Source of the DNA: Campylobacter ornithocola
Lineage (GTDB): Bacteria; Campylobacterota; Campylobacteria; Campylobacterales; Campylobacteraceae
Length of the DNA: 64,000 nt
Assembly (NCBI RefSeq): GCF_013201605.1
Contig: NZ_CP053848.1
Span: forward strand, 744,001-808,000
Reading direction: 5' to 3'
The position numbers and the translations under genes were made by a program. Below, in pieces: positions 73 through 50,441 of this stretch. Position 1 is the first letter of the stretch. Each line of letters opens with the position of its first letter. Under the pieces are notes generated by a model that was not told the DNA's origin, did not search any database, and saw nothing but the letters and a program-made list of their open reading frames with translations.

Positions 73-2697
73 TTGAAAGGATATTTTAGTCTAAAGTCAC
101 ATTGCACCCTATGGGGGGGGGGGAACGATAATTTTCGTTTTAACTTACACTCTTTAAGTTTAAATCTTTTTAAATCTTATAAACATTCTAAACTTTTAAA
201 ACTTTCTTTACTAACTATTTTATCACTAAGTTCTTTAAATGCAGCCACACAAGCTACTTATGATAATACTTTAAAAGCTTATGTTATTAAAAAACATGGT
301 TTTAATGATGAAAGTGTATATGATAATACTAATGATACTTATAAGTTTTTAAATGGTAAAAACTTCTATGGTCAATTAGCTACTAATAAAAATCTTTCTA
401 ATATCACTTTAATCTATGATAATCCCAAATCAAAACATATGAACTTTAGTGATATGAGATTAAAACAAGAAATACTTACTCCAAATATAAAAGAAGATAT
501 CTTTGTAGTAAATGGCTTTCATGGAGCATATTCTGCTAATAATAGCATTAATCAAATAAGCTATATACCTTTTTTAGTTTCAGCTTATACCTTTAATGCT
601 AAAGCTAATAATAATACCCTAACATTAAAAGCAGGAGAATTATCTTCTATATATTATTTAAAACCTACTAATAAAGAAGTAATGAATCCTAAAGCTACAG
701 GTTTAGATAATAAATATAATTTTTTAATTACCCCAGCTATAGCAAGAAAGGGTGAAGCTAGTAATAATACTTTAAATTATTTAAAAGATGCTTATGTGAA
801 TATGGGTGTTGAAAACACTTATACCTTAGTTTTAAATGGTGCTCCTTATGTAGTAGGTGCTTTTGGAGTGGATGCTAATACTAATAATAATAGTGTTATA
901 TTAAACAAAGGAGTAAAGATAGACTTTCATACTACTCCTTATAGACAAGGTGCTTTAGGAGAGAGTATTTTTGATGAGAGAATGACTCATATTTTAGGTG
1001 CTATGAGCTACAATGCTAATGCTAATAAAAACAAACTCATTATAGATGGAGCTTCTTTAGTAGTTCATGGACCAAGTGGAGCTTATTCAACATCAGCTGC
1101 TACACATTTAGGTGGAGCCTTTGTTGATGTAAATAATAATCAAAACTACCAAGTTAGTGAAAACACCACCTTAATCAATGATTTAAAACTAGATTTAAGA
1201 GTAGATACTAAAAATACCCCATTAGCTTATAATGCTGTATTAAATGGAGAAATCTATGGAGGTAAGATCACTCAAGGTAATGCTCATAAAAATACTATAG
1301 AAGTTAAAGACTTACAAACCTTACTTGCTCTAAATACTAATATAGAAGTAAAAGCACTCTTAGACTTTTATGCAGGATTTGCAAGTAATGGCTATGCTAA
1401 TGATAATAAGATTAATATAAATCTTAAAAAACCTTTTGAGATTAATGCTAATTTTACTGGAGAGAATGAATTTAATCTTTATGGAGCTTATGCTAGTAAG
1501 GGTGCTAGTAGAAATAGTGTGAATATAAAAGGGGATTTAACCCAAGAAAGTGTAGTAGAAAACTATCAAGATAAAATTTCAATCACAGCAGCTAAGGTAT
1601 TAAGTGGAAAAGCAGATAATAATAAAATTAATCTAAGCTCATCTAATGTATCTATACCTTTATATATTTATGGAGTTAGTAAAACTACTTTAGATAATAA
1701 AGACTATTATGCACAAACAGCAAGTGATAATATTATTAATTTAAAAGAAGTAAAATCAGCTAGAAACCTAACCACTATTATAGAAGCAAATAATTTAGAA
1801 AAAAATACCATTAATTATGATTTAGTTCAATCTTTATCTAATGCTTCTAATATAGATAAGGGTTCTAAAATCATTTTAAGAGCTAATGAAAACGCTTTAG
1901 ATAATACTTTAAACATTAAAGATTATTCAAGTGCTGCTTATGATAATGTATATGTTATTAGTGCTAAAGAAGAAAGTGCTAATAATAATATTAGCTTTAC
2001 AAATTTAGCACTAGGTACAGCTTCTGATAAAAGAGAAGGTAGGGTATTAATTAGTGCAGGTATAGCTAAAAATACTCATGATAATTATATCCATATAGCT
2101 AATTTAAATATAGATGAGTATAAAAACAATGAAGCTATTATTATAAGTGCTTCTGGTGTATATAGTGAAAATGATAAAAGCTATAATAATACTTTATATT
2201 TAAGTGGTAATACTAATATATTTAATAATACTAAAATAGATATATTAGCAGGTAGCTTTTTACAAACCCAAACTGATAATGGTTTTACTCCAAAAGCCAT
2301 AAAGCATAAAAACAATACTAATAATCATCTTTATTTAAATACTAATATCAGTGCAAAGCTAGTAAATAACTTTGATCATTATAGCTTTATCTTAAAAGAT
2401 GATACAAAGAATTATTTAAGTGCTAATGAAGCTATTAATTTAAGTGAAAAAACTTCTATTAATGTTTATACCAACAATAATATAAAAAATAAAAGCTTTA
2501 TTCTAATGCAAAGTGAAAAAGGCTTTATAAATGAGGATAATAAACAACTAGATCAAAAAGATTTACAAAGCTTATTAGACATTATCACTAAAAACAATCA
2601 AAGCTTACATAAAAACATTAAAGCAAAGGTTCAAAAGGCTAAATACACTCTAAGTGCAAGTAAAGATGCAAAAAGCATAGTAGTGAATTTAAATTAA
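73..2697 (+). CDS. Asn-rich autotransporter-passenger-like surface protein, no beta-barrel, poly-G tract near start
   Basis: Large repetitive secreted protein of 874 residues from the TTG at 73. The N-terminus carries the FSLKSHCTLWGGG block, which I recognise from Campylobacter autotransporters, then a hydrophobic stretch ending in SLNA at about residue 57 that looks like an extended signal peptide. The rest is Asn/Lys-rich with many spaced A-x-x-NN-x-(L/I) units, as expected of a beta-helix passenger. It ends in VVNLN with no C-terminal barrel or aromatic terminal residue, so a self-transporting barrel is missing. A G11 tract at 113-123 is in frame with the whole ORF. The start is doubtful: an AAAGGA ribosome site lies at 76-81, downstream of the TTG, and no in-frame ATG/GTG/TTG follows it. 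tpsA starts 30 bp downstream. It may be an orphan passenger or a relic; no function can be assigned. Confidence 0.6.
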   Translation: MKGYFSLKSHCTLWGGGNDNFRFNLHSLSLNLFKSYKHSKLLKLSLLTILSLSSLNAATQATYDNTLKAYVIKKHGFNDESVYDNTNDTYKFLNGKNFYGQLATNKNLSNITLIYDNPKSKHMNFSDMRLKQEILTPNIKEDIFVVNGFHGAYSANNSINQISYIPFLVSAYTFNAKANNNTLTLKAGELSSIYYLKPTNKEVMNPKATGLDNKYNFLITPAIARKGEASNNTLNYLKDAYVNMGVENTYTLVLNGAPYVVGAFGVDANTNNNSVILNKGVKIDFHTTPYRQGALGESIFDERMTHILGAMSYNANANKNKLIIDGASLVVHGPSGAYSTSAATHLGGAFVDVNNNQNYQVSENTTLINDLKLDLRVDTKNTPLAYNAVLNGEIYGGKITQGNAHKNTIEVKDLQTLLALNTNIEVKALLDFYAGFASNGYANDNKININLKKPFEINANFTGENEFNLYGAYASKGASRNSVNIKGDLTQESVVENYQDKISITAAKVLSGKADNNKINLSSSNVSIPLYIYGVSKTTLDNKDYYAQTASDNIINLKEVKSARNLTTIIEANNLEKNTINYDLVQSLSNASNIDKGSKIILRANENALDNTLNIKDYSSAAYDNVYVISAKEESANNNISFTNLALGTASDKREGRVLISAGIAKNTHDNYIHIANLNIDEYKNNEAIIISASGVYSENDKSYNNTLYLSGNTNIFNNTKIDILAGSFLQTQTDNGFTPKAIKHKNNTNNHLYLNTNISAKLVNNFDHYSFILKDDTKNYLSANEAINLSEKTSINVYTNNNIKNKSFILMQSEKGFINEDNKQLDQKDLQSLLDIITKNNQSLHKNIKAKVQKAKYTLSASKDAKSIVVNLN
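113..123 (+). repeat. Poly-G contingency tract, G11
   Basis: Eleven consecutive G residues in an AT-rich genome, inside codons 14-17 of the gene starting at 73. Tracts of this length slip during replication in Campylobacter and switch genes on and off. At G11 the downstream frame is open to the TTG at 73; a one-base change would frameshift it. At G10 or G13 the ATG at 111 would instead be in frame with the downstream ORF. Confidence 0.9.
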
Positions 2698-2727
2698 AAA
2701 CAAAAATAAAAACAATAAGGATATATC

Positions 2728-5700
2728 ATGAAAGCACATCATAAACTCTCAAATCATATCATACTCTCAGGTATAACAGTATCAATGCTTTTTTCTCCAC
2801 TAATGGCTTTACCTAGTGGAGGTAAATTTACTCATGGGACTAGTGGAACTATATCTGGTCCATACTTTGATAAAAATACTGGTAAAAACACTATTGATAT
2901 CACAGGTAAAACACCAAATAAAAATAGCCATGTTATCCAATGGGGTGGTGGTTTTAGTATAAATAAGGGTGAAAGTGTAAATTTTAAAGGTCAAGGACAA
3001 AACTACCTAAACATTGCTCATGGAACAAGTAAATCTACTATAGATGGCTTATTAAATGCAAGTGGTAATAATGTCTTTTTAATCAACCCTAATGGAGTAA
3101 TCATTACTAAAAATGGAATTATCAATGCTAATCGCTTTGTGGCTTCTACTTCGTCTTTAGAAGCAACACATTTCGAGAAATTTAAAGAGCAAGGTGCTTC
3201 TTTTTCTCCTGTATTTAAACCATCTAAGGGTGGTAATGTAGTGAATATGGGTAATATTAATGCTAATAATGTATTACTTATAGGGAATAAGGTAGATATA
3301 CAAGGTGGTAGTACCAATGGTATGCATAATGCAAATACTAGTGGTGATGCTTTAAAAAGACCAAGTGGTAATACGGCTAATAAGGTTCATTTGGTAGGAA
3401 ATGAAGTTTACATACTAGCAGATGGTATTAATTCAGATTCTATTATAGCTAGTGCTTATAGTAAAGGTGCCTTACAGCAATCTACTACATCTTATTATAA
3501 TTATGGTAATAGTCTAGGTAAACTTAACTTTATTACTCAAGAATATGACAATATAGATAAAGCAAATTTAGGCGATAAAAAATTAGTAACTAAAGATAAA
3601 TTTGAAAAACATGCAACTATAGCTTCTGATATAGATTGGTGGCATTTTGCTAAGGGATGGAATGAAAATAAAAATGAAATGAGAGATTTTTTTGATACCT
3701 ATAAATTAACTAATGATGTTGATTTTGGTGGAAATCAAGGAAAAAACTATGCAAACTATTGTATAGATGGATTAGGGTGTACCAATATGATAGTAGGCTA
3801 CAATGATGCTTTTACAAAAACTTTTGATGGACAAAGGTATACACTTAAGAATATCAATATAGATACAACAAACTTAGATAATAAGCCAAAGTATGTAGGT
3901 ATATTTGGTAAAGTTGAAGGGGTTGCTTTTAAAAATATTAATGTTGATTATATGGATGGTGGGATTTTGGTAAAAAATAGTGATTATGTAGGCGGTTTTG
4001 TTGGTTTTGTAAATAATGGCAATTTTGAAAATATTTTTTTAAAAAATATAAAAAATATTAACAATAATGGTAACTACGCTCATTCTTTTAATGCAACAGG
4101 AGGGTTTGCTGGAGCAATAGATAATGGAATATTTTCGAATATTTCTTTAAACAATATTCGAAATATCAATAGCAATCATAGTGTTGATAATGGTAATATT
4201 GATAATTCAACAGGAGGGTTTGCTGGAGTTATAACGGGGAAAGGAAGTTATTCAAATATCTCTTTAAATAACATAGGAAATATTAGTGGTATTACTAAAA
4301 GCACTTATAAATATGCAGTTTCTGGTAGTCAAGTGGGTGGTTTTGTAGGAGAAGCAGAGGTGCTAGAAGAACAATTTTTATATTCAAATATCTCTTTAAA
4401 TAATATAGGAAATATTAGTGGTAGTAGTTATAGTCGTGAAAGTTATACATCTATAGGTGGTTTTGTTGGTCAAACCTCTAGTATAATGGAGGTTATTTAT
4501 TCAAATATTTCCTTAGATGGTATAAAAAATATTATTGGCAATAGTAATATCTATGATAGTGGTTATGGTTTTAATCATACAGGTGGTTTTATCGGATTTT
4601 TTAGCGGATATTATATTTTTTCAAATATCTCTTTAAATAATATAGGAAATATTAGTGGTAGTGGTAGTAATAGTTATAATCGTGAAAGTTATTCAGATGT
4701 AGGTGGTTTTGCTGGGTATATTAGTAAAGGTCAATCGCATTTTAAGAATGTCTATGTCAATATAAAATTTAATAATGGTAATGATAATTATGGAAAATTC
4801 TTTGGAGGTGCTAATAGGTTTAGTGATGTTGAATATACTTTTAACAACATCCACATCTACCACCATGAAAACGATTTAACCAACGCAACTGCCGATCAAG
4901 CTTACTGGAATGATTTTAATAAAAATGGTTATGTTTCAGATAAAATAAACATTCACACCTATAATGATAATACTCAAGAAAGTGTTTATAAAGACTTTTT
5001 ATCTAAGGCAAATACTATAGAAAAACCTAATATAACACCACCATCTAATCCAACAGATCCTACTAATCCAAGTAATCCTGATGTTGTTTTAGGTAGTGAT
5101 GATGTAATTAGCAAAGAAGATTTAAACCAATGGCTTGATGAAATATTTGCAGGAAATTACTGGGTAGATATAAAAGATCTTGATAAAATTCATGGCCTAA
5201 ATGAAAGTATCATTCAAAGTATATCTTTCTTAGAAGCTTTATATGGTCAAGAAGGTATGAAAGATATATTGGAAAAATTCCATAATGATTATAAAACAGC
5301 TTATTCTAAGTATGAGGAATTTAAAAACAATAAAGCAGAACTTTTAGCTTTTATCAATGAAAAGTTAAAACCTTTAGTAGAACACTCTAATAATTCTCTA
5401 AAACAACTACTAACCAAACAAAAAGAACTTGATAGTGTTGTTAAAGCTTATAATGCTTATGTAGAATTAATCAATAAAGGTTTAGCAAGTAAAAATGATC
5501 AAGAATTTAAAACCTTAGAAAATAAATTAAATTCTTTAATGAGTGAAAGTCAAATTCTAGCTAATAGTATTTCTAATAATCAAATGCTATTAGAAAAATG
5601 GCAAGGAAAAACAAATACTGATTCTAATGGTCATTTTACTATCAAAGGTGCCTTTGCTAATGCTATATTAAATACAAATCCTGACTTAAAAGAAATAACT

Positions 5701-43597: not shown

Positions 43598-44085
43598 AAT
43601 ATATCTATTTTATCCGTCATGCTAAGGCTCAAAAAGAAAATTACGATCAAGACTTACAACGAGAGCTTAGTTCTAGTGGAAAAGATGATCTAAAAACTAT
43701 GATTTATAGGATTAAAGATTTAGATTTTACAGCTCAAAGTATTATTTCAAGTCCTGCTAGGCGTTGTATAAAAACAGCACAAAAACTCTGCAAAAGTTTT
43801 TCTTTAAAAGAAAAAGATATTAAGATAGAAAAAAGCTTTTATGATGGTAATTTAAAGGAAGTGTTAAATTTTATAAAAGAATTAAAAGAGAGTAGGGTAG
43901 TGTTAATTATGCATAATCCTTTATTGCAAGAACTTTGTGAATATTTAACTCATATAGATTTAGAAAGCTTTCCAACTTCTGCTATTTTATGTATGCAATT
44001 TGATATAAAAGAATTTAAAGATATAAAAGAACACAGCGGGGAAGTTGTGTTTTTTGATTATCCTAAAAGTCAAGAAAATAGCTAA
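43594..44085 (+). CDS. SixA-like histidine phosphatase
   Basis: 163 residues. The histidine phosphatase motif is at the N-terminus (FIRHAKAQ), with ISSPARRCIKTA and a second catalytic His in LIMHNPLL. The small single-domain form resembles SixA, which removes phosphate from phosphohistidine. It is the second gene of the rhomboid operon (ATGA overlap). The substrate is not known here. Confidence 0.85.
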   Translation: MKYIYFIRHAKAQKENYDQDLQRELSSSGKDDLKTMIYRIKDLDFTAQSIISSPARRCIKTAQKLCKSFSLKEKDIKIEKSFYDGNLKEVLNFIKELKESRVVLIMHNPLLQELCEYLTHIDLESFPTSAILCMQFDIKEFKDIKEHSGEVVFFDYPKSQENS

Positions 44086-44503
44086 TCTACATTTTTAACT
44101 TCAATTTTATTTAAGTAAAAATATAAACTAAAATTTAGTTGAAATAAAAAATATACATCTTTGGTCTTTCATAGCTACATAAAATAACTTATAATATTTT
44201 TCAAAAAATTATACTTATTTTTTTATGGATAAGTTATTTTAATTCAAAAGTTAAAATGTTATAAAATACTATATTATAATGATTTTAAAAGATATTTTAC
44301 TTATGAAAGTACAGATAAATATAAAAGTTTGAAAATTATAGTTTTCAATACAAAATATATATAATTTCAAGATTTTACTATTTATCATATAATTATACAT
44401 ATATATTAAGTTTATATTAAAATATTTTTATAGACTAAAAAGGTTAAAATTATAAATGAAAGAAAATTAACATAAAAGTTTAGATTATAAAGAGTTTTTA
44501 GGT
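44086..44503 (+). other. Gene-free AT-rich region of about 420 bp
   Basis: No ORF of convincing length on either strand and no sequence I recognise. It holds a 12-bp perfect inverted repeat (AAAATAACTTAT at 44181-44192 and its complement at 44229-44240, 36 nt apart), a TATAAT at 44275-44280, and a compact dyad TTGAAAA-TTATAG-TTTTCAA at 44329-44348. It could hold an untranslated RNA or a DNA site; nothing decides between these. Confidence 0.6.
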
Positions 44504-44704
44504 TTATTTGGATTTTTGGATTAATCTTGAAAGTTGTCTTGCTAAAAGTTTAGCACTATTTTCATCTTTGCTAAGTTTTTTCATATTTTCTCTAAATTCA
44601 TAAAGTCTTTTTTCTTGTGAAAAGTCATTATTTAAAGTATTATTTTGTTTTGAGGTATTGCTTTGATTTACTTGCTTTTGTATAGTTTTTTTCTTGAAAA
44701 ACAT
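44504..44704 (-). CDS. Small basic hypothetical protein
   Basis: 66 residues, Lys/Asn/Gln-rich, no signal peptide or membrane helix. The C-terminal half (RLYEFRENMKKLSKDENSAKL) is strongly helical. AAGGTGAT precedes the ATG and TATAAT lies about 30 nt further upstream on the minus strand, so expression is plausible. I do not recognise it. Confidence 0.6.
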   Translation of the reverse strand: MFFKKKTIQKQVNQSNTSKQNNTLNNDFSQEKRLYEFRENMKKLSKDENSAKLLARQLSRLIQKSK

Positions 44705-44798
44705 ATTATCACCTTATTTTGTTTTTATAATTATAGCTTGATATTTTTTAAGTAAGATTTTTTTATAATTTTTATATTAAATTTAAAAGGAAAAAAGT

Positions 44799-45482
44799 TT
44801 GAAAACTATAGGTTTAATAGGTGGAATGAGTTATGAAAGCACGCTTAGTTATTATGAAATAATCAATAAATTAACCAATGAAAAATTAGGAAAATTACAC
44901 AGTGCTAAGATAGTTTTAACTAGCGTTGATTTTGAAGAGATAGAAGAGTGTCAACGCAAAAATAATTGGCAAAAAGCGAGTGAAATTTTAACTCAACATG
45001 CCCTACTTTTGCAAAAAAGCGGAGTTGATTTTATATTAATTTGTACCAATACTATGCATAAATGCTATGAAAGCGTACAAAAAAATATTCAAATTCCTAT
45101 TTTGCACATAGCCAAGGCTATGCTTTTAGAGCTTCAAGAACAAAGCATTGATAAAGTATTGTTGCTAGGGACAAAATATACTATGTTAGAAGATTTTTAT
45201 AAGCAACTTTTAACGACTTCAAATATTGAAGTTTTTATCCCTAGAAATGATGATATTTTAAAGCTTAATGATATTATTTTTAATGAGCTTTGTAAAGGTA
45301 TTATAAAAGAAGAATCAAAAAGATATTTAAATGGTTTAATTACTCAATTTCCACAAGCTCAAGGGGTGATTTTGGGCTGTACTGAACTTGGTTTGATTAT
45401 AAATGAGAGCTCTAAAAAGCTATTTGATAGTGCTTATATTCATGCGAAAATGGCTACTTTAAAAGCTTTGGAGAATGTGTGA
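44799..45482 (+). CDS. Aspartate/glutamate racemase family protein
   Basis: 227 residues from a TTG with AAAAGGAAAA upstream. The paired catalytic cysteines are in ICTNTMHK (about residue 83) and LGCTELGL (about residue 198), and the start IGLIGGMSYESTLSYYE is typical of RacD-type aspartate racemases. PLP-independent; could make D-Asp or D-Glu. Its end overlaps xerH by 4 nt. Substrate choice is not readable from the sequence. Confidence 0.85.
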   Translation: MKTIGLIGGMSYESTLSYYEIINKLTNEKLGKLHSAKIVLTSVDFEEIEECQRKNNWQKASEILTQHALLLQKSGVDFILICTNTMHKCYESVQKNIQIPILHIAKAMLLELQEQSIDKVLLLGTKYTMLEDFYKQLLTTSNIEVFIPRNDDILKLNDIIFNELCKGIIKEESKRYLNGLITQFPQAQGVILGCTELGLIINESSKKLFDSAYIHAKMATLKALENV

Positions 45483-46549
45483 TGAAATATCCGCTAGATT
45501 GTGAAGAAAATTTTGAAAAATCATTTTTATTTTGGCTTTGTAGATATGTGAAATTTAAGCTTAATTCTTTATCAAATAAAGAATTAAAAGATCCACGGGC
45601 TTTAGCTATGGTAAATTTAGCCTTAAGCAAAGGTGTTAAAAATATACAAGAGCTTGATGCTTATGTAAAAAAAGCTAGAAATGCAGGGCTTGGTGGTGTA
45701 AATACGTATTTTAATCCTTTGAAAAAACTTTATGAGTATTTGTTGTTTTATAAACTTTATTCATTAAAGCAAATCGATGAAGAGCTTTTGGTAGAAATTT
45801 TAGCAAGCATTAGTGCTTCTTTATCTGATGCGAGTAAGAAAAATTACCGCATAGCCACAATTAATTTTTTTGCATTTTTAGATAAGCAAAATGAGGAAGA
45901 TCAAAAGGCACATATTTTTGATATTAATCTTAAAAACTGGGCAGGTATAAGTGGTTCTAAGGGAGTTAAGCTACCTGAGTATATGAGTGAAGATGAAGTG
46001 AGTAAATTTTTAGATGCTATTGATAGTACAGACTTTAAAAGCAACACTATACGCAATCGCTTAATTATTAAAATCATCATTTTTACAGGAATTCGAGTTA
46101 GTGAAGCTATTAATATAAAATTAAAAGATATTAGCGAAGAAAATGATCTTTATATTATACGCATTAGAGCTAAAGGCAATAAATACCGCGTTGTAATGAT
46201 TAAAAAAGAGCTTATAGAACATCTTTTAAAAGATGTAAAAGTAAATTATCTTTCTTGCGATGGACTTTTATTTGTTAATCGCAACGGCAAAGCCCTAACC
46301 CAAGCTTATATTTCTCGTATAGTAGAGCAAATTTTATTTAAAGCTGGGATCCGTAAGCAAAAAAATGGAGCTCATATGTTAAGACATACTTTTGCTACCC
46401 TACTTTATAAAAAGCAAAAAGATTTAGTCTTGGTTCAAGAAGCATTAGGACATGCAAGTTTAAATACTTCAAGAATTTATACTCATTTTGATAATGAAAA
46501 GCTAAAATTAGCTGCAGAAGTAGCCAAAAAACTTCATGATAGAACTTAA
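45479..46549 (+). CDS. xerH: Tyrosine recombinase XerH
   Basis: 356 residues. N-terminal SAM-like DNA-binding domain (about 40-150) and catalytic domain with Arg in FTGIRVSEA, Lys in RAKGNKYR, HMLRHTFATLL (H-x2-R), and EALGHASLNTSRIYTHF holding the last His and the nucleophilic Tyr. Epsilonproteobacteria use this single recombinase on difH to resolve chromosome dimers. ATG overlaps the racemase stop (GTGATG). Followed by a FlxA-like gene 45 nt downstream. Confidence 0.92.
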   Translation: MMKYPLDCEENFEKSFLFWLCRYVKFKLNSLSNKELKDPRALAMVNLALSKGVKNIQELDAYVKKARNAGLGGVNTYFNPLKKLYEYLLFYKLYSLKQIDEELLVEILASISASLSDASKKNYRIATINFFAFLDKQNEEDQKAHIFDINLKNWAGISGSKGVKLPEYMSEDEVSKFLDAIDSTDFKSNTIRNRLIIKIIIFTGIRVSEAINIKLKDISEENDLYIIRIRAKGNKYRVVMIKKELIEHLLKDVKVNYLSCDGLLFVNRNGKALTQAYISRIVEQILFKAGIRKQKNGAHMLRHTFATLLYKKQKDLVLVQEALGHASLNTSRIYTHFDNEKLKLAAEVAKKLHDRT

Positions 46550-46566
46550 TTTTTTATAAAAAAATC

Positions 46567-46572
46567 CGATAT
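46567..46572 (+). promoter_or_regulatory. Sigma28-like -10 (CGATAT) upstream of FlxA-like gene
   Basis: CGATAT fits the CGATWT -10 element of Campylobacter FliA promoters; the -35 side is only weakly matched. Expected transcription start is about 46579, inside the hairpin described next. Confidence 0.45.
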
Positions 46573-46594
46573 ATCCTTAAAGAAAGGATATATC
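46568..46594 (+). promoter_or_regulatory. Perfect 11-bp hairpin sequestering the FlxA-like ribosome-binding site
   Basis: GATATATCCTT pairs exactly with AAGGATATATC around the loop AAAGA. The 3' arm contains the AAGGA ribosome-binding site and ends on the base before the ATG at 46595. A transcript that reads in from xerH would fold and hide the site; one starting at the sigma28-like promoter would lack the 5' arm. Confidence 0.75.
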
Positions 46595-46963
46595 ATGCAA
46601 ATAAATGACTATGCTAGTAAAATCAATCCTTATGTTTTAAATATTCAAAAAGAAGAAAAAGAAAGTAAAGAGAGTAAGAATTTTATAGAATTTAAACTCA
46701 CTCAAGGTGTAAAAGAGCTTGAAAAAAGCGTTAAAGAAAGTCAAAATGGAGAAAAATCAGAAGATGAGTTAAGTAAACTTTATAAAGAACTTTCTAAAAT
46801 ACAAGCTAAAATAGTAGAATTAAATGCTAAATTACAATCAAGCCAAGATCCTCAAAAAGCTCAAATGATTAATTCTCAAATTCAAAGTTTAAATTCACAG
46901 ATGCAAAGTATTTACGCAAGGATAACTCAAATGTTATCTCAAGCAATGCAAGCCGTTAAATAA
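46595..46963 (+). CDS. FlxA-like small helical protein, probable flagellar co-expressed gene
   Basis: 122 residues, no signal peptide, rich in Gln/Ser/Lys. Residues about 65-120 form a heptad-like coiled coil (ELSKIQAKIVELNAKLQ ... IQSLNSQMQSIYARI) resembling the FlxA family, which is FliA-dependent in E. coli. A CGATAT sigma28-like box lies upstream, and C. jejuni has a sigma28-controlled secreted protein (FspA/Cj0859c) in a similar neighbourhood. Homology to FspA is not established. The ribosome-binding site is inside a perfect hairpin. Confidence 0.7.
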   Translation: MQINDYASKINPYVLNIQKEEKESKESKNFIEFKLTQGVKELEKSVKESQNGEKSEDELSKLYKELSKIQAKIVELNAKLQSSQDPQKAQMINSQIQSLNSQMQSIYARITQMLSQAMQAVK

Positions 46964-47039
46964 GTTTTTGTATCTATAATTTAAGGGGTATTTTTTACTT
47001 TTTATTGTATTATCAAAGTTTAAAAATTAAGGAGTTTAA

Positions 47040-49517
47040 ATGAATTGTAGGTTGCTATCTTCATTGATTTTGGCTAATGTGTTATACGCAAATACTGGAT
47101 GGCAAAATAATGGAGATACTTTAAGTTATTGCAGTGGACAAATAAATTGTACTGTTTTTGAAAATGTAAATAATGATAGTTTAATTTTTAATAATGGGGG
47201 GGGGGAAAATGGCTCTTTAGTAATACAATCAGACGATAATTCTGTTGTTAATATTTCCTCTAACTCTACTTTTATAAAAAATCAAGGTACTATAGATAAA
47301 ATAAGCATAAATTCAGATTTTAATAATAATACTAAAGGGCATTATTATTTTATTAATAACGATAAAACAATTAATTCTATTATCGTCAAAAAAGATATAG
47401 TTTTCACAACTAGTCAAGGTATTATCCATAATCAAGGGTATATAGAAACTATAACAAATAATGGAACGATTAATAGCATTGGTGATTATATATTGTTTAA
47501 TAATATTGGTAATGTAAAACATATTATCAATAATGGAACTATAAATACTAATTCAAATTTATATGTTGGTGGTTTGCAAGGTGCTAAGCTGAGTGAATTT
47601 AAAAATAGTGGAATTATAAAATATTACGGTACAAGTGGAAATCTTAGATCTTTAATCACAATGTTAGAAGGTGAATTAGATATATTTCATAATACAAAAA
47701 CAGGGATTATTAAATCAAATCAAACAATTTTGGAAAACTGGGGTAAAGTTAAAATTGACACTTTTAATAATGAAGGCTTAATTGAAGTAGATTCAACTAA
47801 AGAAGATAATGATTATGCTATTGAATTTTCTCATTTAGAAGATAAGGATTATAATGAATATGGTATAAATAATTTCCACAATAGTGGTAAAATCATAGTA
47901 AAAAATAGCACAAAAGGTGGTGCTATTTATATTTCTAGAGTTAAAACATTTGCTAACACTGGCATTATATCTTCAGATAATGCTAGTGCAGTGATTTTAG
48001 GTACAGTAGATACTATCACTAACACAGGCACTATATCAGGTAAAATTGGTATAGGTTTATTTAGCGGTGATATACCTATTGATACTGCTTTTTCTAATAC
48101 TGGTTCAATCAAATTTAAAGGAAAAAGTGGAGCTCATATTAATTTAGATAAAGATTATAATAATAAATTAAATATCGCAGATTATAATCTTTTTATAGCT
48201 CAAGATGCTAATGCTTTCTCATCTAATGATTTTGGTATAAAAGATAAAGATTTTGATAATTTTGATAGTTTAAGTAAACAATCCCACATCATAATTTCTT
48301 ATGATAATGCACACAACAATGGCATAGATTCTTTAAAAAACATAAACTTTAAAAAAGGTAGTATAAGACTTAATGTAGATGATATGATAGGAAAAGGTTT
48401 TAAATTAAATACTTACTATAGTACTAATGATCTAATCTTAGTTAATGATGGTAGTGGTACTTTAACTTCAGCAGGAGATAAAGTAAATAATGGATATGGT
48501 TTAGGAAGCGTAGATTATCTAGCGTCTATGAGTAATAATATCTACGAAATAGCTTATAAAAACTCAAGTTCTAAGCAAGATTATAATGATACTTTTTCTA
48601 TCAATGTTCAAAAACAAAATTCTAAATCTTATGTTGCCAATCAAGCTTCTAATGTGAGTAATATAAGAAGAATACATTTTATTAATGATGTTATTTCTGA
48701 TGAGATAACTAAAATGAAAGAAGATAATTATTTTTACGCTAAGGCTTATTTTGTAAATGATAATTATGATTTAGCTCATAATAATGGTAAATTAGACGGC
48801 AATGGATATGGAGTTTTATTTGGTTTTAGTAAAAACTTATATGATGATTCTATCATAGGTGCTTATGTGGGTTTAGAAACTCAAGATTTAGATAATAATT
48901 TTAATCGTTTAAGCATAAAAGATCAAGTCTCGTTTGTTGGATTAAACTATTATAAAAAGATAAAAAAATTTAATAAGAGTGATTTATATATAAAAACCCA
49001 AGCTAGATCTTCTTATGTAGATTCTAAAATAGATAGAATTTTAGAATCTAAAGAAGAGGATAAATATGGAAGTTTTTCTTTAGGTGTTTCTGCGGGTTTA
49101 GGGTATGATTATTATTTTAATGATAATTTCACCATACAAGCTAGAACAAACATAGACTATGATAGACTTGAACATGGTGGTTTTACTTTAGGCAATGAAA
49201 ACTATCATTTAAGTCATATTGATTTATACGCTCTTAGTCAAGAATTAAAGGGTATTTATATGATTAATGATAAATTTTATACTAATGCTTCTTTAGGAGC
49301 TAAAGTAAATATAAAAGATTATTACTATGCTGATTTTGAAATAAATGGAACTAATTATAAAGATAAATACTATCTTGATAGAATGTATTATTTTGCACAA
49401 TTAGAATTTTCTTATATTATTACTCCAAAATCTAATATATCTTTATCTTATAATGGTTTATATTCAGATAGATTAACTTCTCATAGTGGTGTTTTAAGTT
49501 ATAGATATTTATGGTAG
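47040..49517 (+). CDS. Autotransporter with beta-helical passenger and C-terminal barrel, phase-variable
   Basis: 825 residues. Signal peptide (MNCRLLSSLILANVLYA), then a passenger with NNGTIN and NTGTIS repeats typical of a right-handed beta-helix (about 20-470), a linker with NDGSGTLTSAGDKVNNGYGLGSVDYLA (500-530), and a 12-strand-type autotransporter barrel (about 560-825) ending in SYRYLW. An aromatic final residue is needed for barrel insertion by BAM. A G10 tract near residue 55 is in frame, so the gene is in the ON state. AAGGAG precedes the ATG. Type V adhesin; target unknown. Confidence 0.9.
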   Translation: MNCRLLSSLILANVLYANTGWQNNGDTLSYCSGQINCTVFENVNNDSLIFNNGGGENGSLVIQSDDNSVVNISSNSTFIKNQGTIDKISINSDFNNNTKGHYYFINNDKTINSIIVKKDIVFTTSQGIIHNQGYIETITNNGTINSIGDYILFNNIGNVKHIINNGTINTNSNLYVGGLQGAKLSEFKNSGIIKYYGTSGNLRSLITMLEGELDIFHNTKTGIIKSNQTILENWGKVKIDTFNNEGLIEVDSTKEDNDYAIEFSHLEDKDYNEYGINNFHNSGKIIVKNSTKGGAIYISRVKTFANTGIISSDNASAVILGTVDTITNTGTISGKIGIGLFSGDIPIDTAFSNTGSIKFKGKSGAHINLDKDYNNKLNIADYNLFIAQDANAFSSNDFGIKDKDFDNFDSLSKQSHIIISYDNAHNNGIDSLKNINFKKGSIRLNVDDMIGKGFKLNTYYSTNDLILVNDGSGTLTSAGDKVNNGYGLGSVDYLASMSNNIYEIAYKNSSSKQDYNDTFSINVQKQNSKSYVANQASNVSNIRRIHFINDVISDEITKMKEDNYFYAKAYFVNDNYDLAHNNGKLDGNGYGVLFGFSKNLYDDSIIGAYVGLETQDLDNNFNRLSIKDQVSFVGLNYYKKIKKFNKSDLYIKTQARSSYVDSKIDRILESKEEDKYGSFSLGVSAGLGYDYYFNDNFTIQARTNIDYDRLEHGGFTLGNENYHLSHIDLYALSQELKGIYMINDKFYTNASLGAKVNIKDYYYADFEINGTNYKDKYYLDRMYYFAQLEFSYIITPKSNISLSYNGLYSDRLTSHSGVLSYRYLW
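47196..47205 (+). repeat. Poly-G contingency tract, G10
   Basis: Ten G residues coding for Gly-Gly-Gly and the first base of Glu in NNGGGENGS. Slippage by one base would truncate the autotransporter just after its signal peptide. Confidence 0.92.
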
Positions 49518-49540
49518 TTTTAGCACAGAATTCTCTCACA

Positions 49541-49578
49541 ACCCTCTAATCATAAAAAAATGATTAGGGTCGGTTTTT
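49541..49578 (+). terminator. Terminator of the autotransporter gene
   Basis: CTAATCAT and ATGATTAG form an 8-bp stem extended by ACC/GGT with a 2-nt bulge, around an A-rich loop, followed by CGGTTTTTG. Confidence 0.75.
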
Positions 49579-49586
49579 GTAATACA

Positions 49587-50441
49587 TTATTTTTTAGCAT
49601 TTAAAAAAACACTAAGAATAATTAGACTAAAAGCAAAAAGATCTATTGCACTATAAATAGTATCTAAAAATAAAAAACTCATAAAAGCAGCAGCCACAGG
49701 TTCTATGCAAGCTATCATACTAGCCTTAAAAGCTCCTATTAATTCAACTCCTTTTAAATATAAGCAAAAAGCTCCTATTGTACCTATAAATATAATCCCA
49801 CTCATAGCCAAAAAGGAGTTTAAAGAAAAATCATGTTTTGGGATATTTCCTTGTAGTAATGTAAAAAGCAAAAAAGAAGCGAATAGACTAGCTAATCCCA
49901 TGATTAAAAACAAGCCATATTTTGATATGATAACCCTAGCACTTAAAGAATAAAATGCTACCCCAATAGCTCCAAAAAATGCCCAAATAACACCTCTTAT
50001 ATCAAGTTTTAATGTTGTAATATCTCCATTTGTTATGAGTAAAAACAAAGCAAAGAGTATCAAAAACAAAGCAATCAATTCTATCTTTTTAGGAAAAATC
50101 TTATTTTTAAAACACATAAAAAGCATTATAATTAGCGGTGCGTTGTATTGTATCATCGTAGCAGTTCCTGCGTCGGTATAGTAAATAGCCTTAAAATAAC
50201 CATATTGTGTTATTAATAAACCAAAAATAGAAAAAATTAAAAGAGAGCTGATTTCTTGTTTTTGTTTTAGTAATTTTAATTTGAAATTTTTTGCACCTAA
50301 AATTATTAAAATAATGCCTGTAAAAAACAAGCGATAAAAGCTTACATACTCAGCAGAGTAGTGATTTTTAAATAAATATTCAGCCAAAACTCCACTAATG
50401 GCCCAAAATATCCCACCAAGTATAACCAAAAAAACTCCCAA
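49587..50441 (-). CDS. EamA/DMT family transporter
   Basis: 284 residues with about ten transmembrane helices in two EamA repeats: the first (about 3-135) with GVFLVILGGIFWAISGVLAEYL, the second (about 147-282) with GVIWAFFGAIGVAFYSLSAR and ACIEPVAAAFMSFLFL, whose EPV motif is typical. Inner-membrane drug/metabolite exporter; substrate unknown. I recall an EamA gene beside murA in C. jejuni (Cj0860). Confidence 0.87.
   Translation of the reverse strand: MGVFLVILGGIFWAISGVLAEYLFKNHYSAEYVSFYRLFFTGIILIILGAKNFKLKLLKQKQEISSLLIFSIFGLLITQYGYFKAIYYTDAGTATMIQYNAPLIIMLFMCFKNKIFPKKIELIALFLILFALFLLITNGDITTLKLDIRGVIWAFFGAIGVAFYSLSARVIISKYGLFLIMGLASLFASFLLFTLLQGNIPKHDFSLNSFLAMSGIIFIGTIGAFCLYLKGVELIGAFKASMIACIEPVAAAFMSFLFLDTIYSAIDLFAFSLIILSVFLNAKK

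What the first reader, a model, noticed from the sequence alone, without database searches (positions are those of the whole stretch)
46567..46597. Hairpin that hides the FlxA-like start unless transcription begins inside it
The perfect 11-bp stem covers the AAGGA site and ends at the ATG. Its 5' arm overlaps the sigma28-like CGATAT box. RNA from sigma28 would begin near 46579, lacking the 5' arm and translatable; RNA reading in from racemase-xerH would fold and be silent. This would gate a flagellar-phase protein against read-through, as in phage T4 late genes.
Basis: partly seen in the sequence, partly recalled or inferred. Interest (0 to 1): 0.62.

Follow-up and report, generated by a model that had tools for sequence, protein, structure and literature searches.

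The report
Hairpin gating a flagellar-phase secreted protein
In Campylobacter of the lari group, a conserved RNA hairpin probably keeps the gene for a flagellum-secreted protein untranslated when it is copied by accident from the upstream genes, and only RNA started by the flagellar sigma factor, inside the hairpin, escapes; phages are known to do this, but I know of no flagellar gene that does.

Summary
A perfect 11-bp stem (46568-46578 / 46584-46594, 5-nt loop) covers the AAGGA ribosome site, ends one base before the ATG, and its 5' arm overlaps the sigma28 box CGATAT (46567-46572). The mapped sigma28 spacing in C. jejuni puts the RNA start at about 46578-46581, so sigma28 RNA lacks essentially all of the 5' arm. 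The stem is unlikely by chance: 4 of 5000 shuffles reach 11 bp, and the next longest SD-covering stem in the window is 6 bp. The gene is not FlxA proper but a distant relative of FspA, the flagellum-secreted protein of C. jejuni (Cj0859c). The sigma28 box and short leader occur across the genus; the hairpin occurs only downstream of racemase-xerH in the lari group: strong in 7 of 9 species, weakened in one, missing in the outgroup. One species has a compensatory pair (A-U to U-A). Another has three changes, all G-U tolerant, favouring a + strand RNA over a minus-strand terminator or DNA operator. Predicted cost of opening the ribosome site is about 10.6 kcal/mol in read-through RNA against 1.0-3.4 in sigma28 RNA. 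A T4-late-gene-like read-through lock is the best explanation; I found no expression data.

The parts
46567..46572 (+). sigma28 (FliA) -10 box CGATAT
   Evidence: Matches CGATwt (PMC3847290 and PMC4626219). CGATWT, or CGATTG once, lies 17-48 nt before the start of almost all relatives of this gene in the genus; one of them, L015, has no box.
46568..46578 (+). 5' arm of the hairpin, overlapping the -10 box and the start-site spacer
   Evidence: Perfect 11-bp complementarity to 46584-46594
46578..46581 (+). predicted sigma28 transcription start (inferred, not mapped here)
   Evidence: CGATwt lies 6-8 nt upstream of mapped sigma28 TSSs in C. jejuni (PMC3847290)
46579..46583 (+). hairpin loop AAAGA
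46584..46594 (+). 3' arm, holding the SD and the whole SD-ATG spacer
46584..46588 (+). Shine-Dalgarno AAGGA
   Evidence: Same as the C. jejuni RBS consensus aAGGa (PMC3847290)
46595..46963 (+). fspA-like gene, 122 aa (start codon 46595-46597)
   Evidence: NCBIfam NF041454 FspA E = 6.6e-13, below cut-off; same locus, next to EamA-family and murA genes, as cj0859c
46626..46631 (+). AUCCUU in codons 11-13; weak alternative partner of the SD in sigma28 RNA
   Evidence: MFE structures of sigma28-type RNAs
46558..46564 (+). A7 tract upstream of the -10 box (read on the minus strand, a T7 tract after the hairpin)
   Evidence: comparable A-runs precede sigma28 boxes of relatives that lack the hairpin
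45482..46549 (+). xerH, the proposed source of read-through RNA, stop codon 18 nt before the hairpin
   Evidence: Pfam Phage_integrase and Phage_int_SAM_6; no terminator-like site between it and the gene
44799..45482 (+). Asp/Glu racemase gene, overlapping xerH (same operon, inferred)
   Evidence: the ORFs overlap by 4 nt

Best explanation
The hairpin is a read-through lock on a late flagellar gene. RNA that enters from the racemase-xerH operon carries both arms, folds into an 11-bp stem that buries the AAGGA site up to the base before the AUG, and is translationally silent. sigma28 RNA polymerase recognises CGATAT, which lies inside the 5' arm, so its RNA starts at the arm/loop border, lacks the 5' arm, leaves a ~15-nt leader with a usable SD, and is translated. 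Synthesis of the FspA-like flagellum-secreted protein is thereby tied to the sigma28 phase, when the export apparatus exists. Shown by sequence and computation: the anatomy, the conservation and compensation in the lari group, and the predicted difference in SD accessibility. Inferred: the start site (by transfer from C. jejuni), that read-through RNA occurs, that translation is blocked, and the physiological purpose.
For: Position: the sigma28 start predicted from mapped C. jejuni promoters falls at the arm/loop border. Folding: SD unpaired 0.005-0.02 in read-through RNA of 7 lari-group species, p <= 0.015 against shuffles in each; SD opening cost in the window genome 10.6 versus 1.0 kcal/mol with 120 nt of coding sequence, or 3.4 with 48-60 nt; the gap is about 8-11 kcal/mol in the six species with the Watson-Crick stem at 120 nt. 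Conservation: G023 changes A-U to U-A on both sides while keeping a legal CGATTT box; G018 and G023 extend the stem to 12 bp with the loop held at 5; G026 has three differences, all G-U tolerant. Random substitutions would keep all pairs in both lineages with probability about 0.0005-0.009 depending on the ts/tv ratio. Context: racemase and xerH overlap and no terminator-like site precedes the gene. The stem stays stable at 42 C (-10.4 kcal/mol), so it is not a thermometer in this range.
Against: I found no RNA or protein data for this locus. The hairpin is weakened in G001 (SD opening 3.9 versus 2.9) and absent in G046 (2.7 versus 2.3), so the gate is dispensable. Relatives outside the lari group with a co-directional gene 40-108 nt upstream lack it. 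sigma28 RNA can pair its SD with codons 11-13; with 48-60 nt of coding sequence opening it then costs 3.4-5.2 kcal/mol in most species. With only five distinct leaders the covariation count alone is not significant (106 of 500 shuffles).
Confidence: 0.57

Rival explanations
1. The inverted repeat is the intrinsic terminator of minus-strand RNA: transcripts of the convergent EamA-family gene run antisense through the fspA-like gene and stop at the hairpin plus T7, protecting xerH from antisense RNA.
For: Read on the minus strand the hairpin is followed by GATTTTTTTA and is reported as terminator-like. In several relatives the EamA-family gene ends about 2 nt from the fspA-like stop, leaving no room for another terminator.
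Against: Only 3 G-C pairs, and 2 nt between stem and T-run. In G026, where the EamA-family gene is still adjacent, the three differences are G-U on the + strand but A-C mismatches on the minus strand. In G021, where no EamA-family ORF was found at the usual place, the hairpin is perfect. A-runs also precede the sigma28 box in relatives without the hairpin.
Confidence: 0.1
2. The hairpin is an mRNA 3'-end protector or processing site for the racemase-xerH transcript, and its overlap with the SD is incidental.
For: It lies 18 nt after the xerH stop, where 3'-stabilising hairpins are common (general knowledge).
Against: No U-tract follows it on the + strand. The 3' arm fits the SD-to-ATG interval exactly and the 5' arm starts in the -10 box, which a 3'-end hairpin need not do. 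An 11-bp stem is short for RNase III (general knowledge).
Confidence: 0.08
3. A DNA operator: a dimeric regulator binds the palindrome over the -10 box and represses the sigma28 promoter.
For: Perfect dyad overlapping the -10 box; the G023 double change would also keep a dyad.
Against: The palindrome is unique in the genome, so there is no regulon. G026 breaks the DNA dyad at 3 positions while its RNA pairing survives through G-U.
Confidence: 0.06
4. A real but functionally neutral hairpin inherited by close relatives: sigma28 box, SD and start are kept for their own reasons and the pairing drifts.
For: Restricted to one clade of species 88-97% identical in xerH; lost or weak in two of nine.
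Against: The spacer ATATATC and the stretch after the -10 box have no other known reason to stay complementary, and changes in G023 and G026 keep all pairs (joint probability about 0.0005-0.009).
Confidence: 0.15
5. CsrA site: the AAGGA hairpin is presented to CsrA, as for other flagellar mRNAs of C. jejuni.
For: C. jejuni CsrA binds AAGGA and regulates flagellar mRNAs (PMC4894983).
Against: The CsrA motif is AAGGA in a hairpin loop; here AAGGA is in the stem, and sigma28 RNA lacks the hairpin altogether.
Confidence: 0.04

Closest known systems
Phage T4 late-gene hairpins (I-TevI, I-TevII, I-TevIII, segB; T4 e, soc and others; Aeh1 mobE)
   Same: A hairpin sequesters the RBS only on long upstream-initiated transcripts; a late promoter is placed so that its RNA lacks the sequence needed for the hairpin, and translation is confined to the late phase (PMC2988022).
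   Different: Here it is a chromosomal bacterial gene and the late factor is cellular sigma28; the -10 box itself forms part of the 5' arm. T4 cases have been studied experimentally, this one has not.
Tn10/IS10 protection against read-through transcription (from memory, not retrieved here)
   Same: External transcripts fold and hide the transposase RBS; the element's own RNA does not.
   Different: It protects a mobile element; no phase-specific sigma factor is involved.
C. jejuni fspA (cj0859c)
   Same: Single gene with a sigma28 promoter encoding a small protein secreted through the flagellum (PMC9856085, PMC3145565); the locus is likewise between EamA-family/pab genes and murA.
   Different: None of the relatives outside the lari group examined here has the SD-hiding hairpin, and the protein here scores below the FspA family cut-off.
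Dual-promoter flagellar genes of enterobacteria (flgMN, flgKL)
   Same: A late-class gene can also be reached by RNA from an upstream operon (PMC4183435).
   Different: There the upstream RNA is thought to be used; here it would be silenced.

Membership tests
T4-type 'late promoter inside RBS-hiding hairpin' control | RNA structure that sequesters the RBS in upstream-initiated RNA | tested here: met
   SD unpaired 0.02, opening cost 10.6 kcal/mol; prediction only
T4-type 'late promoter inside RBS-hiding hairpin' control | Phase-specific promoter placed so that its RNA lacks one arm | tested here: met
   CGATAT 46567-46572 with TSS predicted at 46578-46581 (one search rule); not mapped in this species
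T4-type 'late promoter inside RBS-hiding hairpin' control | Gene is present on longer transcripts from earlier promoters | tested here: inconclusive
   Co-directional racemase-xerH operon, no terminator-like site before the gene; no RNA data
T4-type 'late promoter inside RBS-hiding hairpin' control | Translation differs between the two RNAs | not testable with these tools
   needs reporter fusions
Structured RNA under selection | Compensatory or pair-keeping changes | tested here: met
   G023 A-U to U-A; G026 three G-U-tolerant changes; small sample, G001 and G046 are exceptions
sigma28 regulon of Campylobacter | CGATwt box 6-8 nt before the TSS | tested here: inconclusive
   Box present and conserved genus-wide before this gene; the TSS itself is not mapped here
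FspA (NF041454 equivalog) | Score above the curated cut-off (120 bits) | tested here: not met
   49.3 bits, E = 6.6e-13: homologue, not called an equivalog
FlxA (PF14282) | Score above the gathering cut-off (26.3 bits) | tested here: not met
   17.5 bits
Intrinsic terminator, + strand | U-tract directly after the stem | tested here: not met
   ATGCAAATAAAT follows
Intrinsic terminator, minus strand | Stem followed by a U-tract, conserved as such | tested here: inconclusive
   T7 present but the minus-strand stem is broken in G026

The most novel reading that the evidence does not exclude
A cellular sigma factor uses promoter placement inside an RBS-hiding hairpin as a second, translational checkpoint of the flagellar hierarchy: only RNA made by sigma28 can be translated, so an exported protein is never made before the export apparatus exists, whatever its neighbours transcribe.
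Probability: 0.45. Interest if true: 0.65.

Novelty: new variant of a known kind. Interest (0 to 1): 0.5.

Why it matters
If true, the phage T4 late-gene trick is also used by a cell, with the sigma28 -10 box doubling as half of the hairpin, so that one short sequence serves both promoter recognition and translational silencing. It would show how a late flagellar gene can sit directly behind another operon with no terminator, and gives a simple rule (promoter box complementary to the SD-ATG spacer) to look for in other compact genomes.

Tried and rejected
(1) Similar CGATTTACC...GGATAAA(C/T)TATG leaders in other species of the genus looked like a second case but are the ssb-rpsR junction, coding sequence rather than a promoter. 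(2) Rfam: no match in 44000-50000. (3) Other copies of the palindrome in the genome: none. (4) Other sigma28-like short leaders in this genome: nine pattern hits; by eye only this one pairs its box with its SD, and the pattern is no more frequent than its reversed control, so most other hits are probably chance. (5) RNA thermometer: stem still -10.4 kcal/mol at 42 C. (6) MAFFT alignment misplaces the G018/G023 and G026/G001 indels, so pair counts were restricted to the outer 7 bp; on 5 distinct rows they are not significant alone. (7) G046 seemed to hide its SD by a different hairpin (p = 0.01), but that score was for an upstream CGGAA wrongly taken as the SD; for the true AAGGA there is little difference between the two RNAs. 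(9) genome contigs gave one locus, apparently the same contig as G018.

Full report
What is there. CGATAT is at 46567-46572. GATATATCCTT (46568-46578) pairs perfectly with AAGGATATATC (46584-46594) across a 5-nt loop, and the second arm holds the AAGGA Shine-Dalgarno and the whole spacer up to the ATG at 46595. The local fold is -13.3 kcal/mol, z = -7.4. In the window it is the only one of 66 SD-preceded starts with an SD-covering perfect stem longer than 6 bp, and shuffled upstream DNA reaches 11 bp in 4 of 5000 trials. The palindrome is unique in the 1.64-Mb genome.

Where it is. The genome belongs to a Campylobacter of the lari group. This is inferred from the gene order and protein similarity together with literature on the group; the genome itself is unnamed, and the one named relative (L026) is labelled C. 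jejuni in its record. Upstream lie an Asp/Glu racemase gene and xerH, overlapping, with no terminator-like site between xerH and the gene. The 122-aa product is a distant FspA homologue (NCBIfam 6.6e-13, below cut-off), a better name than FlxA (Pfam 0.0045). C. jejuni fspA (cj0859c) lies next to cj0860 and murA, has a sigma28 promoter, and its product is secreted through the flagellum (PMC3145565, PMC9856085). The window gene lies at the corresponding locus, with an autotransporter gene after it.

The promoter. C. jejuni sigma28 promoters are CGATwt at 6-8 nt upstream of the mapped TSS (PMC3847290). That places the start at about 46578-46581, the border of arm and loop. Relatives of this gene across the genus carry CGATWT (once CGATTG) 17-48 nt before the ATG; one, L015, has no box. 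The promoter assignment is therefore strong even without mapping here.

Accessibility. In read-through RNA the SD is 0.5-2% unpaired in seven lari-group species, each at p <= 0.015 against shuffled upstream sequence. Opening it costs 10.6 kcal/mol in the window genome with 120 nt of coding sequence, against 1.0 in RNA starting at the predicted sigma28 site. A caveat found on the way: with 48-60 nt of coding sequence, sigma28 RNA can pair AAGGAU with AUCCUU in codons 11-13, raising the cost to 3.4 kcal/mol in the window genome and up to 5.2 in others. The difference from the read-through RNA is still about 6-9 kcal/mol in the species with a Watson-Crick stem, but only 1-2 in G026 at that length (4 at 120 nt). 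The terminating xerH ribosome stops 18 nt before the stem, so it is unlikely to open it (inference).

Conservation. The xerH tree places G046 outside, G026+G001 as sisters, and the window genome with G009, G037, G023, G018 and G021. In the last six the stem is perfect. G023 has A-U replaced by U-A on both sides, within a legal CGATTT box. G018 and G023 have a 12-bp stem with the loop still 5 nt. G026 differs at three pairs, each G-U tolerant. On the minus strand these would be A-C mismatches, and in the DNA they break the dyad, so the pattern favours a + strand RNA over a minus-strand terminator or an operator. This rests on one lineage. Random substitutions keep all pairs in both lineages with probability about 0.0005-0.009. 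The formal pair count on five distinct leaders shows 100% pairing of the outer 7 bp but is not significant alone. G001 has a 2-nt bulge and a weak stem, and G046 has none. G046 also lacks the racemase gene upstream of xerH; that fits a link between the lock and the upstream operon, but it is a single contrast.

Interpretation. The simplest account of a hairpin whose one arm is the sigma28 -10 region and whose other arm is exactly the SD-to-ATG interval, kept by pair-preserving changes, is a lock on read-through RNA opened by starting transcription inside it. This is how T4 late genes and several homing endonuclease genes are kept silent on early transcripts (PMC2988022). Shown: anatomy, rarity, conservation in the clade, predicted accessibility. 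Not shown: that read-through RNA exists, the TSS in this species, any effect on translation. The lock is clade-specific and is absent or weak in two of nine species, so it is a refinement rather than a requirement.

Rivals. A minus-strand terminator is the best-supported mechanistic alternative, since there is a T7 after the stem and a convergent EamA-family gene whose 3' end abuts the fspA-like gene in relatives. Against it are the G026 pattern, the intact hairpin in G021 where no EamA-family ORF was found, and the presence of similar A-runs before sigma28 boxes that lack hairpins. An operator, a 3'-end protector, a CsrA site and neutral inheritance are less likely for the reasons listed.

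Verdict. Observation confirmed; interpretation plausible and strengthened, but untested at the bench. A new variant of a known kind of control, of moderate interest.

Noticed in passing
47040-49517 (G-tract 47196-47205): Autotransporter gene with a run of ten G near its 5' end, probably phase-variable; the relative in L048 (G018) is read only from after the tract. Most other lari-group species lack the gene at this locus.
   Followed up: partly
L044 and L046 (G026, G001), 5' arm: In both species the 5' arm contains an in-frame ATG eight codons before the usual start, giving a 130-aa open frame that only read-through RNA would carry.
   Followed up: no
L024, upstream of the FspA-like gene (minus orientation of the locus): In a distant relative the sigma28 box lies in a different palindrome, CGATATA-AAAAA-TATATCG, which does not cover the SD.
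   Followed up: no
46626-46631 and orthologues: AUCCUU in codons 11-13 is complementary to the SD and kept in most lari-group species; it may be only the coding constraint of Asn-Pro-Tyr.
   Followed up: partly
L045 (G046), 2290-3010: The outgroup lacks the racemase gene upstream of xerH, the EamA-family gene and the hairpin together.
   Followed up: partly
47903-47928 and 47957-47988: Hairpins with 3-4 G-C pairs inside the autotransporter coding sequence, flagged as terminator-like.
   Followed up: no
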